Source: Pedobacter sp. AK013
GTDB taxonomy: Bacteria > Bacteroidota > Bacteroidia > Sphingobacteriales > Sphingobacteriaceae
DNA length: 64,000 bases
Assembly (NCBI RefSeq): GCF_014205835.1
Contig: NZ_JACHCQ010000003.1
Location: 62,001 to 126,000, forward strand
Direction of reading: 5' to 3'
The translations under genes were made by a program, and so were the position numbers. The notes under the pieces are model-generated. The model did no database searches, was not told the origin of the DNA, and saw only the letters and a program-made list of their open reading frames with translations. Below, in pieces: positions 20,308 through 63,957 of the stretch; positions within the stretch are counted from its first letter, which is position 1; every line of letters begins with the position of its first letter.

Positions 20308-20416
20308 AAAAATTTAAGCTCCACACAATATATTCTATTTACAGCGTTTATGTATGTGAGAGCGTTAATTTAGATGACGGGGATACTGCCTAAGGGTGGA
20401 ATCCCCGTTTCTTTTT
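20308..20416 (+). ncRNA. Candidate small RNA element, copy A
   Basis: About 109 nt homologous to copies B and C near 22 kb. The shared core is ACAGCGTTTATGTATGTGAG followed by AGCGTTAATTTAGATGA. It ends in a terminator stem, ACGGGGAT (20377-20384) with ATCCCCGT (20401-20408), then a T-rich tail. In the other copies the same stem reads ATGGGGAT / ATCCCCAT, a compensatory C-G to T-A change. No open frame fits. The promoter is not obvious. I do not recognise it as tmRNA, SRP RNA, RNase P RNA or a known riboswitch. Confidence 0.55.
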
Positions 20417-20417
20417 A

Positions 20418-20493
20418 AGCAGAGGGCAAGGTACGTGGAACAGAACCAATGGCGATCAAATCTCCACACTCCGTGTGCTCTGCTACTAAGCAC
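20418..20493 (+). other. Possible structured region after RNA copy A
   Basis: GCAGAG near 20420 can pair with CTCTGC near 20480, enclosing a CACAC/GTGTG hairpin, and GTGCT can alternatively pair with AGCAC near 20490. The region ends in the strong terminator that follows. It could be a 3' extension of copy A or a second RNA. Confidence 0.3.
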
Positions 20494-20527
20494 AAAAAAG
20501 GGACATTATTAAAAAATGTCCCTTTTT
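20494..20527. terminator. Bidirectional intrinsic terminator
   Basis: GGGACATT (20500-20507) and AATGTCCC (20515-20522) are flanked by A6 on the left and T5 on the right, so the hairpin can work in both directions: for the RNA region on the left and for the convergent membrane-protein gene on the right. Confidence 0.85.
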
Positions 20528-20551
20528 AGATATATGATAGAGTTAAGAATT

Positions 20552-20941
20552 TTAGCTTTCTTTATCAGTAAAATCAATTGGTTTTTTTTCAAAATACTGA
20601 TCGAAGTTTTGTACTTTTTTTGGTTTTAAGATTACATATAAGCCTAAGCCGATCAATACCATTGGAATGCTAATCCTAAACAGATCGAAATCAAATATGT
20701 TTATTGCTTTAAAAGTGAATAAGCCTCCAATAATGGTCAATGCCAACCAGCCGCTTCCTTGAAAATTTTTACGGTAACCCACCCACAAACCTATACCTAA
20801 CATAATGGTATGCCATTTCAATATCCAATGTGGAACATCTATTCCCGAGTTTCTTAATAAGAATACCGAACCGATGGCAATGATTAAAATGCCTAGACCA
20901 AATTGTTTATCTGCGTGATTTTTTTTGATTAAATTTTCCAT
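20552..20941 (-). CDS. Small LiaF-like (DUF5668-type) membrane protein
   Basis: 129 residues with four closely spaced helices (about 12-30, 44-56, 65-83, 90-107) in the layout of the LiaF transmembrane domain: FGLGILIIAIGSVFLLRNSG at the start, GSGWLALTIIGGLFTF in the middle and SIPMVLIGLGLYVIL near the end, then a short polar tail. The C-terminal cell-wall-active domain of full LiaF proteins is absent. Envelope-stress sensing is suggested by the family only. The gene stands alone and ends at a shared terminator. Confidence 0.75.
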   Translation of the reverse strand: MENLIKKNHADKQFGLGILIIAIGSVFLLRNSGIDVPHWILKWHTIMLGIGLWVGYRKNFQGSGWLALTIIGGLFTFKAINIFDFDLFRISIPMVLIGLGLYVILKPKKVQNFDQYFEKKPIDFTDKES

Positions 20942-21134
20942 GACCGTTTTGTTTTATGATTCAAATGTATCACGAATACCAATGCTGGAGAATGGCTTTT
21001 CCCCTAGTTGTGATGTTTTATCGGCGAGTGAAATAAAACCGTCGGTAAAAAATTCATGGAAATTTAAAGAGAGTGTATTTCATCGGTGAAAATGTCAGTT
21101 TTGCTGCGCAAATACCAAAGAAGACGGAATAAAA

Positions 21135-21199
21135 CTTAATTTTCTTAACTCCTTCATGCTAAAAATTTTGATCACCATGAAGAAGTTAAGATTATTAAG
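21135..21199. repeat. Imperfect 24-bp inverted repeat with CTTAA-type words
   Basis: The arms at 21135-21158 and 21176-21199 pair at 21 of 24 positions around a 17-nt loop. They are built from CTTAACTCCTTCATG-like words. The rest of the roughly 360-bp gap (20942-21302) shows no gene. It ends in a degenerate AATGAACCAATGACTAATG repeat at about 21265-21295, next to the 3' end of rpiA. Confidence 0.6.
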
Positions 21200-21302
21200 A
21201 GAAATTACCTCAATTCTTAAGATTGGTATCGTCATTCCACTTAGCAATAACAAAATGAGGGACACAAATGAACCAATGACTAATGAACCAGTAAATCAGC
21301 TA

Positions 21303-21992
21303 TCATTCGAAAATAATTATATCCGCCCCCTCGCTCATGATCACCTTTGAAGTAAGGTTGATAAATAAGCCATGGGCCAGTAATCCATTAATCTGGTTCA
21401 GGTTAACAGATAATTTTGCAGGATCATCAATAAGGCCAAAATCGGCATCGATAATCAGGTTACCATTGTCGGTAATAAATGTTTGGTTTTCTACCGCTCT
21501 CAATATACCTTTTCCACCAAGTTTATTAATTTGATCGAATACATATTGATAGGCTAAAGGAACTACCTCAACAGGGACAGTAAAAGCACCCAATTTTTTA
21601 ACTTTTTTCGAAGCATCGGTAATAATGATGGCATTTTTACTAAGTGAAGCAATTATTTTCTCTCTAAACAGGGCCCCGCCCCCACCTTTAATCAGATCAA
21701 GTGATTCTGTAAATTCGTCAGCCCCGTCAATACTGATATCGATTTTGCTTAAGCCCCCAAGGTCAAGAATTTCGATCCCTAGCGATTTCGCAAGTTCTTG
21801 TGTTCGGATGGAGCTTGCAGCTGCTTTTATTTTTAGGCCAGCTTTTACACGTTTGCCTAGTTCGTTAATGGCAAAGGTCGTAGTAGAACCGGTACCCAGG
21901 CCTACTACATCACCATCTTTAACAAATTTTACAGCAGCCAGGGCAGCTGCCAGTTTCTCTGCATCTTGTTGTATTTTATCTGTAGTAGCCAT
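21303..21992 (-). CDS. rpiA: Ribose-5-phosphate isomerase A
   Basis: 229 residues of the RpiA family, interconverting ribose-5-phosphate and ribulose-5-phosphate in the non-oxidative pentose phosphate pathway. Signatures are GLGTGSTTTFAI (about 32-43), SIDGADE, KGGGGALFREKI and VEVVPLAYQYV. The length is standard and the ATG at 21992 is followed by a usual N-terminus for the group. It is transcribed alone and diverges from the two RNA-like repeats upstream. Confidence 0.97.
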   Translation of the reverse strand: MATTDKIQQDAEKLAAALAAVKFVKDGDVVGLGTGSTTTFAINELGKRVKAGLKIKAAASSIRTQELAKSLGIEILDLGGLSKIDISIDGADEFTESLDLIKGGGGALFREKIIASLSKNAIIITDASKKVKKLGAFTVPVEVVPLAYQYVFDQINKLGGKGILRAVENQTFITDNGNLIIDADFGLIDDPAKLSVNLNQINGLLAHGLFINLTSKVIMSEGADIIIFE

Positions 21993-22032
21993 AAAGTAAA
22001 AATAGGTTTAAATGATAAACATCCCAAAAACG

Positions 22033-22147
22033 AAAAAAAATTTCATAGCTGATGCAATAAATCATTTTTATAGCGTTTATGTATATGAGAGCGTTAATTT
22101 AGATGATGGGGATTCTGCACTAGTGGGATCCCCATTTCTTTTTTCTC
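22033..22147 (+). ncRNA. Candidate small RNA element, copy B
   Basis: Homologous to copy A and about 93% identical to copy C over the same span. The core GCGTTTATGTATATGAGAGC plus GTTAATTTAGATGATGGGGAT ends in the stem ATGGGGAT (22106-22113) / ATCCCCAT (22128-22135) and a strong T-run (22136-22147). It is transcribed away from rpiA if it has a promoter. Confidence 0.55.
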
Positions 22148-22164
22148 TCATCCCAATGCGCGAT

Positions 22165-22300
22165 GTCATCCTGTCCAAAGGACTCCTACAGAGAGCGCAG
22201 TCGAAGGATCTTTTTATTTAACAGACCCTGAAATAAATTCAGGGTGACGAGTTCCAGCGTGTAGATTTCTCCATTTCGCTACGCTTCAGTCGAAATTACG
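22165..22300. repeat. REP-like repeats attached to RNA copy B
   Basis: GTCATCCTGTCCAAAGGACTCC, a GTCGAAGGATC segment, ACCCTGAAATAAATTCAGGG plus TGACG, and a CATTTCGCTACGCTTCAGTC plus GAAATTACG segment follow one another. All are forms of the window's dispersed palindromes. Confidence 0.65.
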
Positions 22301-22341
22301 ACCAGGGGGCAATGACCGAAGGGGCATTCACAAATCAAGAC

Positions 22342-22456
22342 GAAAAAAAATTTCATAGCTAATACAATAAATCGTTTTTACAGCGTTTATATATGTGAGA
22401 GCGTTAATTTAGATGATGGGGATTCTGCACTAGTGGAATCCCCATTTCTTTTTTCT
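22342..22456 (+). ncRNA. Candidate small RNA element, copy C
   Basis: Third copy. The core CAGCGTTTATATATGTGAGA plus GCGTTAATTTAGATGATGG leads to the stem ATGGGGAT (22416-22423) / ATCCCCAT (22438-22445) and a T-run (22446-22456). It agrees with copy A at CAGCG where copy B has TAGCG. Confidence 0.55.
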
Positions 22457-22684
22457 CTCACCCTAATGCGCGATGTCATCCTGTCCAAAGGACTCCTACG
22501 GAGAGCGGAGTCGAAGGATCTTTTTATTTAACAGACCCTGAAATAAATTCAGGGTGACGACTTCCAGCATAGATTTCTCCATTTCGCTACACTTCAGTCG
22601 AAATGACGAAAATTTCTATTCAAATTTCTGCCATAAAAAAACGGCTGGCATTTCTACCAACCGTTTCCTAACAACTAAACTTAC

Positions 22685-63313: not shown

Positions 63314-63957
63314 TTTAAATTGTTTTTTTTGGAGCGCAAGGTTCGAAGCAATGATTAAATTTTGTTCCCGTTCTTCGCTGTACCCTTTCGCTGCACTTCA
63401 GGGATGCCGCTTCGCCCGGGGCTAGGCACACTGGTACTGCAAGAAGGTTAAGGTTTAGAGAAACCGTTGTTTTGGGTTTTGGAAACACAGGCCCTTCTTC
63501 AATAAACCTTATTGCAGCGGTTATACTTTTTGCTGCACAAACAAACAGCCAGCAATAACATCCATAAAAAGATAGTAGCGGAAAGAAGGACTACCTGAAC
63601 CGAAAAGCACCAAACCTGCTTTTCAAAAGATTTAAATTGTTTTTTTGGAACGCGAGGTTCGAAGCAACGATTAAAGTTTGTTCCCCGTTCTCCGCTGTAT
63701 CCTTTCGCTGTGCTTCAGGGATGCCGCTTCGCCCGGGGCTAGGCACACTGGTACTGCGAGAAAATACAGAACGCCCACCTACTTCTTTCGTAAGCATTCA
63801 TTTTTTATTTCTTGCACAGCCCCTCGTTCAATAAACCTTATTGAAGCGGCTATCCTTTTTGTTGCCCACACAAACATCCCTCACTAACCATCACAAAAAG
63901 ATAATAGCGGAAAGAAGGGCTACCCGAACCGAAAAGCGCTAACCCAGCTTTTCAAAA
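63314..63957. repeat. Tandem duplication of a non-coding repeat of about 320 bp
   Basis: Unit 1 (63314-63629) and unit 2 (63630-63957) share the same order of segments: TTTAAATTGTTTTTTTGGA, GGTTCGAAGCAA, a GC-rich stretch with CAGGGATGCCGCTTCGCCCG and GGGCTAGGCACACTGGTACT, then TTCAATAAACCTTATTG, AAAAAGATA, TAGCGGAAAGAAGG, GAACCGAAAAGC and GCTTTTCAAAA. Short open frames exist on both strands across the GC-rich stretch but look like by-products. The 780-bp right end of the window (63217-64000) contains no other feature. Confidence 0.75.

What the first reader, a model, noticed from the sequence alone, without database searches (positions are those of the whole stretch)
20308..22456. A repeated RNA-like element with a covarying terminator stem
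Seen directly: three copies on the plus strand (20308-20416, 22033-22147, 22342-22456) share a core of about 45 nt and end in a stem plus T-run. The stem reads ACGGGGAT/ATCCCCGT in copy A and ATGGGGAT/ATCCCCAT in B and C, so one base pair changed on both sides together. No reading frame is shared. Inference: a small RNA family not matching tmRNA, SRP RNA, RNase P RNA or any riboswitch I know.
Basis: partly seen in the sequence, partly recalled or inferred. Interest (0 to 1): 0.7.

Follow-up and report, generated by a model that had tools for sequence, protein, structure and literature searches.

The report
Pedobacter sRNA seed shared with phages
A tiny RNA gene that Pedobacter bacteria carry in several copies, and that some very different bacterial viruses carry too, keeps one fixed 18-letter stretch in front of an interchangeable stop signal, so it is probably a regulatory RNA used by host and virus alike.

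Summary
Copies A, B and C are three members of a multicopy small-RNA gene family. The conserved part is not the stem but an 18-nt stretch, GAGAGCGTTAATTTAGAT, followed directly by an intrinsic terminator that differs from copy to copy. Its first 15 nt occur exactly 12 times in this genome and 2-15 times in each of 36 of 36 genus genomes searched (Pedobacter, judged by named relatives), and in 0 of 23 genomes of other families. Promoter-like boxes just upstream of 132 of 179 host copies suggest that the RNA starts at the core: a single-stranded 5' seed plus a terminator, about 55-60 nt.

The unexpected part: 31 IMG/VR contigs carry the exact 18-mer and 0 carry it reversed. They include tailed phages and three Microviridae, where the gene follows the capsid gene. 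One of this genome's own copies lies in a prophage.

Best reading: a trans-acting, base-pairing sRNA family analogous to Bacteroides FopS, whose seed phages also carry. Targets are unknown: SusC translation starts failed the test. No Rfam family matched above its threshold. No transcript data were available.

The parts
20358..20375 (+). copy A: invariant 18-nt core (5' seed)
   Evidence: exact match; 16-mer plus A, T at 99% in 179 copies
20376..20416 (+). copy A: terminator hairpin and T-run
   Evidence: stem; fold -23.4 kcal/mol, z -3.6
20325..20351 (+). copy A: putative promoter boxes ACAAT (20325-20329) and CGTTTAT (20345-20351), ECF-like spacing of 15
   Evidence: positions; CGTYT just upstream in 105 of 179 host copies; the ECF likeness is recalled, not tested
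22087..22104 (+). copy B: invariant 18-nt core
22105..22143 (+). copy B: terminator hairpin (22105-22136) and T-rich tail
22054..22080 (+). copy B: putative promoter boxes GCAAT (22054-22058) and CGTTTAT (22074-22080)
22397..22414 (+). copy C: invariant 18-nt core
22415..22453 (+). copy C: terminator hairpin (22415-22446) and T-rich tail
22364..22390 (+). copy C: putative promoter boxes ACAAT (22364-22368) and CGTTTAT (22384-22390)
22027..22258 (+). first unit of the tandem duplication that holds copy B (second unit 22337-22568 holds copy C)
   Evidence: 232 nt, 94% identity, spacing 310

Best explanation
Each copy is a stand-alone small-RNA gene. Transcription starts at or within about two bases of the core G and ends at the hairpin and T-run, giving an RNA of about 55-60 nt: a single-stranded 18-nt 5' seed (GAGAGCGUUAAUUUAGAU) on a terminator. 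Some members carry an extra 5' hairpin before the core. The RNAs act in trans, most likely by pairing the shared seed with a set of mRNAs, without Hfq, in the manner of the Bacteroides FopS/GibS sRNAs. Different promoters (an ECF-like CGTYTAT type and a housekeeping TANNTTTG type) let several signals feed one target set. Phages of this clade, including ssDNA Microviridae, carry their own copy and probably use it to steer the same host regulon during infection. Shown here: gene anatomy, invariance of the core, its spread, and its presence in phage contigs and in a prophage. Inferred: transcription, start site, base-pairing, targets, and the purpose in phages.
For: Core exact in 36 of 36 genus genomes, 2-15 copies each, and 0 of 23 other-family genomes; reversed control 1 hit in all 59. 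179 of 179 unique host-set copies have a T-run and 169 of 179 fold at -8 kcal/mol or below, against 163 of 1000 random positions, while terminators differ (60 distinct outer stems). Exact TANNTTTG starts at -13/-12 in 22 of 179 copies against a mean of 0.14 at other offsets, and CGTYT lies at -17 to -7 in 105 of 179. The seed is unpaired in the predicted folds of A, B and C. Among 143 copies in named loci the next ORF is convergent in 89 and co-directional in 32. 31 viral contigs hold the 18-mer and 0 its reverse; 26 of 32 viral copies have hairpin plus T-rich tail against 197 of 2000 random positions, and 5 of 32 the exact -7 box against 4 of 2000. Analogue with shown mechanism: FopS/GibS (passages of PMC11697453 and PMC7366714).
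Against: No transcript data. No target found: 50 of 56 SusC-like starts pair with the seed no better than with shuffled seeds (34 of 60 shuffles as good or better); complementary 7-9-mers are not clearly enriched at 732 translation starts. Among 300 other starts strong duplexes are only slightly in excess (17 against 11.2, sd 6.0, reached by 8 of 60 shuffles). 47 of 179 host copies and 20 of 32 viral copies have neither promoter box. In viral contigs the next ORF is co-directional in 21 of 32, so a cis role there is not excluded. Invariance over all 18 nt is stricter than many sRNA seeds (recalled), which could point to protein binding.
Confidence: 0.6

Rival explanations
1. The core is a protein-binding site and the RNAs are sponges or cofactors: an RNA-binding protein (RRM/RbpB-like, or RNA polymerase) recognises the 18 nt, and copy number sets its free amount. 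Phage copies would titrate the same protein.
For: 18 nt invariant in host and phage while everything around changes; this genome has one RRM_1 protein and 34 of 36 genus genomes have one; Bacteroides FopS binds the RRM protein RbpB (PMC11697453, passages); a 5' hairpin loop in 11 of 179 copies repeats GAGAG.
Against: Two genus genomes at 99% completeness (G016, G032) lack an RRM_1 hit yet have 6 and 4 copies; 18 fixed nt is long for a single RRM (recalled).
Confidence: 0.25
2. An RNA antidote or decoy: the core neutralises a host toxin or defence factor, as type III antitoxin RNAs do, and phages carry it to escape.
For: Presence in unrelated phages including Microviridae; multicopy in hosts.
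Against: No toxin gene was recognised beside the window copies; neighbours of the 12 own copies differ; type III antitoxins are usually repeats just upstream of their toxin gene (recalled). No library of toxins or defence genes was searched with the neighbours.
Confidence: 0.07
3. A cis-acting leader, attenuator or leader peptide (M-R-A-L-I).
For: ATG or GTG AGA GCG TTA ATT TAG can be read in the three window copies; in viral contigs the next ORF is co-directional in 21 of 32.
Against: Only 85 of 179 copies have a start codon there; in named host loci the next ORF is convergent in 89 and co-directional in 32 of 143.
Confidence: 0.04
4. A DNA-level mobile repeat or recombination site rather than an RNA gene.
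For: Dispersed, multicopy, shared with phages; B and C lie in a tandem duplication.
Against: Promoter boxes at fixed offsets, hairpin plus T-run of unrelated sequence, and an ancestral copy at a conserved locus fit genes; by eye, most phage and host copies share only the core.
Confidence: 0.03

Closest known systems
FopS (family of paralogous sRNAs) and GibS of Bacteroides thetaiotaomicron (PMC11697453, PMC7366714; passages read)
   Same: Multicopy sRNA family in an Hfq-less Bacteroidota with a conserved, unstructured 5' seed, different promoters among members, an RRM protein in the genome, and one report of the sequence in a phage.
   Different: Different lineage; here an 18-nt core is fixed and the rest, terminator included, is interchangeable; RNA predicted shorter; many phages, including Microviridae, carry it; SusC starts are not predicted targets. 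The FopS letters were not available, so the seeds were not compared.
Envelope-stress sRNAs with 5' seeds (RybB, MicA) of enterobacteria (recalled)
   Same: Short RNA, seed at the 5' end, terminator at the 3' end, in part under an ECF-type promoter.
   Different: Hfq-dependent and few in number; no sequence relation was tested.
Phage- and prophage-encoded sRNAs in general (search listings only)
   Same: sRNA genes carried by phages.
   Different: Here the seed is identical to a multicopy host chromosomal family and occurs in tailed phages and Microviridae.
Pedo-repair RNA (RF01715), a Pedobacter RNA motif (table in PMC2864571)
   Same: Same genus.
   Different: A 211-position model with no hit in this genome at E up to 10.

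Membership tests
FopS sRNA family | Many paralogous sRNA genes per genome sharing a conserved 5' seed | tested here: met
   12 exact copies here, 2-15 in each of 36 genus genomes; seed unpaired in A, B, C
FopS sRNA family | The R1/R1' seed sequence itself | not testable with these tools
   the FopS letters are in a figure, not in the text held
FopS sRNA family | Seed pairs with SusC-like translation starts | tested here: not met
   50 of 56 SusC-like starts: 34 of 60 shuffled seeds pair as well or better (crude start calls)
FopS sRNA family | Binds an RRM protein (RbpB) | not testable with these tools
   an RRM_1 gene is present here and in 34 of 36 genus genomes; binding needs an experiment
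Pedo-repair RNA (RF01715) | Match to the covariance model | tested here: not met
   no match in this genome at E up to 10
Any Rfam 15 family | Match above the family's gathering score over the element | tested here: not met
   none over a copy; with loose thresholds only one weak overlap, trpB RF04312 at 28.4 bits (cut-off 59), E 4.8, over the copy in L089
ECF-sigma-driven sRNA (RybB/MicA type) | ECF-type promoter at the RNA start | tested here: inconclusive
   CGTYT just upstream in 105 of 179 host copies, 0 of 32 viral copies; no sigma factor was linked to it
Leader peptide or cis-attenuator | Conserved start codon and a co-directional downstream gene | tested here: not met
   85 of 179 start codons; 32 co-directional against 89 convergent in 143 named-host copies; viral copies 21 co-directional of 32

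The most novel reading that the evidence does not exclude
Pedobacter and a range of unrelated phages, from tailed phages to ssDNA Microviridae on 4.5-5.6-kb contigs, share one invariant 18-nt RNA seed mounted on unrelated terminators and promoters. Phages have repeatedly captured the host's seed as a compact way to take over a host RNA regulon, or to block an RNA-binding host factor, so that the host family and the phage copies form one contested RNA circuit.
Probability: 0.4. Interest if true: 0.85.

Novelty: new variant of a known kind. Interest (0 to 1): 0.62.

Why it matters
It extends multicopy-seed sRNA families from Bacteroides to the Sphingobacteriaceae and suggests a minimal architecture: a fixed 5' seed on any terminator. 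It also offers an unusually clean case of host and phage sharing one RNA regulator, even in ssDNA phages with almost no spare genome. Because the seed is fixed and the genes are small, the target set and the reason phages carry it can be tested directly with a seed-mutant sRNA and one phage.

Tried and rejected
Leader peptide: start codon not conserved (85 of 179). Cis-leader in hosts: downstream genes mostly convergent. SusC targets: no better than shuffled seeds. General enrichment of complementary 7-9-mers at 732 translation starts: none convincing. Pairing with rRNA: the 16S RNA has an 8-nt stretch identical to the core and no complementary stretch of 7 nt or more; the rest of that contig has no 7-nt match either way. 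Rfam: nothing over a copy above threshold. INPHARED phages: no match to the copy A region; a viral element gave 23 records with short, mostly weak matches. RRM linkage: an RRM gene lies about 3 kb from a copy in G000, G008, G010 and G030 but not in G007 or G026 (the list of places was cut, so I could not check every genome); taken as local synteny. The 16-mer viral scan added 14 contigs, of which 5 have hairpin and T-rich tail; the rest look like chance matches. Literature: the 16-mer is printed in no paper of the library; listings for Pedobacter and small RNA, FopS and phage-encoded sRNA (54), Pedo-repair (60), Microviridae sRNA (83) and phage-encoded sRNA (84) showed no description of this family; those papers were seen as listings only, apart from PMC11697453, PMC7366714 and PMC2864571, of which I saw passages.

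Full report
CHECK OF THE OBSERVATION. The three plus-strand copies are present as described. Copies B and C belong to one 232-nt tandem duplication at 94% identity, spaced 310 nt, so the A versus B/C base-pair change is one event, not two. Across 12 distinct members of this subtype, 2 of 13 stem pairs change on both sides and 96.8% of cells pair, against 41-53% when the partner is slid; 113 of 500 shuffles reach two double-changed pairs. The predicted RNAs of A, B and C fold at -23.4, -22.2 and -22.7 kcal/mol with z -3.6 to -4.3, leaving the first 15 nt unpaired.

WHAT IS CONSERVED. Related copies share GAGAGCGTTAATTTAGAT, directly followed by a hairpin and T-run of variable sequence. From loci L001-L185 I took every exact 16-mer GAGAGCGTTAATTTAG, dropping 21 duplicates and 8 too close to a locus end, which left 179 unique copies. 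Positions 17-18 are A and T in 99%; identity then falls off. 179 of 179 have a T-run and 169 of 179 fold at -8 kcal/mol or below, against 163 of 1000 random positions of the same loci. There are 60 distinct outer 6-bp stems among the 179; the 12 copies of this genome have ten, counted by eye. Because the copies were chosen by an exact core, mismatch counts matter: in this genome the 15-mer has 12 exact and 3 one-mismatch hits, while all hits at up to 3 mismatches are no more than the reversed control (243 against 274).

SPREAD. The exact 15-mer is in 36 of 36 genus genomes, 2-15 copies each, and in 0 of 23 genomes of other families; the reversed control has 1 hit in all 59. In a sample of 247 class genomes it occurs in 6: the 3 of the genus, 1 of 5 others of the family, and 2 of 239 elsewhere, where the reversed control has 3 hits. 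In 201 family genomes with up to 2 mismatches, all 36 genus genomes and 59 of 165 others have a hit. The reversed control is not empty there (one genus genome, G432, has 9 control hits against 12). The rows shown include exact 18-mers, mostly one per genome, in seven other genera (the listing was cut). One copy seems ancestral: it lies 54-56 nt after the stop of what looks by eye like the same lipoprotein gene in L092, L131, L138, L163 and L119 and in this genome (L006). In Arcticibacter (L145, L156) the gene before it is a different one.

PROMOTERS AND CONTEXT. Column conservation upstream peaks at about -52 to -44 (A/T-rich), -32 to -26 and -13 to -1. Two promoter types are visible. CGTYT at -17 to -7 occurs in 105 of 179 host copies and 0 of 32 viral copies; exact TANNTTTG starting at -13/-12 occurs in 22 of 179 host copies against a mean of 0.14 at other offsets. 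TANNTTTG is the Bacteroidota housekeeping -7 box (passage of PMC7366714). CGTY resembles an ECF -10 box (recalled). 47 of 179 host copies and 20 of 32 viral copies have neither, even with one mismatch allowed in TANNTTTG. These boxes place the RNA 5' end at or just before the core (inference). A minority (11 of 179) has a GGTGAGAGYC hairpin loop upstream, and there the core is internal. Among 143 copies in named loci the next ORF is convergent in 89 and co-directional in 32; 20 have none in the locus and 2 lie inside an ORF. Among 32 viral copies 21 are co-directional, 10 convergent and 1 has none. In the window, A follows an AraC-type regulator with a DJ-1/PfpI domain, and B and C lie between ribose-5-phosphate isomerase A and a large gene with a weak cytochrome match, both on the other strand. 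So the host copies look like stand-alone genes; in phages a cis role is less firmly excluded.

PHAGES. The exact 18-mer is in 31 IMG/VR contigs and its reverse in none. Of 32 viral copies, 26 have a stem of at least 7 pairs with a T-rich tail, against 197 of 2000 random positions; 5 of 32 have the exact TANNTTTG box at the right offset against 4 of 2000, and 12 of 32 with up to one mismatch against 87 of 2000. I searched one to three proteins from 28 of the 31 contigs. Sixteen have a head, packaging or tail match, two of them (L190, L212) weak; the others gave helicases, families of unknown function, other domains or nothing. L191, L198 and L210 (4.5-5.6 kb) encode the Microviridae capsid protein (Phage_F) and a pilot protein. 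The copy follows the capsid gene in all three, and Rep follows the copy in L191 and L210; no Rep was identified in L198. In L188 a tRNA and a permuted tmRNA lie downstream of the copy; tRNA genes are close to the copy in L201, L202 and L203. In this genome the copy L013 lies among portal, terminase, head-protease and exonuclease genes, a prophage. A covariance model from the 12 aligned copies recovers the nine other own-genome loci tested and all 31 viral contigs at E up to 0.0035 (rough E-values; those contigs had been chosen by the core, so this is no independent test).

MECHANISM. The best-supported reading is a trans-acting sRNA with a 5' seed. FopS and GibS of Bacteroides are the closest analogue: paralogous sRNAs, a conserved unstructured 5' seed, start-codon targeting, no Hfq, and a report of the sequence in one phage (passages of PMC11697453 and PMC7366714). 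This genome has no Hfq hit (5 of 14 control genomes ring) and one RRM_1 protein. The direct FopS-like test failed: 50 of the 56 SusC-like starts found pair with the seed no better than with shuffled seeds (34 of 60 shuffles as good or better), and complementary words are not clearly enriched at 732 starts. Targets therefore remain unknown, and protein binding is a serious rival. Why phages carry the gene is inference: to drive the host regulon, to exclude competitors, or to block a host factor.

MEMBERSHIP AND NOVELTY. No Rfam 15 family matches a copy above threshold in the sequences scanned; one sub-threshold overlap, trpB at E 4.8, lies over the copy in L089. The Pedobacter-specific Pedo-repair RNA is a different, 211-position model with no hit here. 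No paper in the library prints the 16-mer. I rate it a new variant of a known kind: multicopy-seed sRNAs are known, but an 18-nt core fixed on interchangeable terminators and shared with unrelated phages, Microviridae included, was not described in anything these searches returned.

Noticed in passing
window 63829-63925 (+): Flavo-1 RNA (RF01705), 46.2 bits against a cut-off of 42; a known Bacteroidota sRNA, unrelated to this element.
   Followed up: no
L285 (G000:C5:128000-147000), core at L285:9968 (-): A prophage in the window's own genome (portal, terminase, head protease, exonuclease, replication protein) carries one of the 12 copies.
   Followed up: partly
L188:7773-8137 (-): A phage contig with the sRNA copy, then a tRNA, then a permuted tmRNA in a row.
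   Followed up: no
L213:10698-11054 (+): A viral contig of 183 kb carries a tmRNA and three tRNA genes near its copy of the core.
   Followed up: no
L188, L193, L201, L203, L216: Five phage contigs share nearly the same hairpin after the core, a phage subtype placed just before tRNA or tRNA-like sequence.
   Followed up: no
window 22148-22300 and 22458-22610: Each of B and C is followed by the same further repeat (part of the tandem duplication and its second block), which looks like a dispersed intergenic repeat.
   Followed up: no
L217:1408-1755 (-): The only RRM_1 gene of this genome lies about 3 kb from a copy (L012); the same spacing is seen in G008, G010 and G030.
   Followed up: partly
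window 20495-20527: A separate 16-bp inverted repeat between copy A and the convergent gene, probably that gene's terminator.
   Followed up: no
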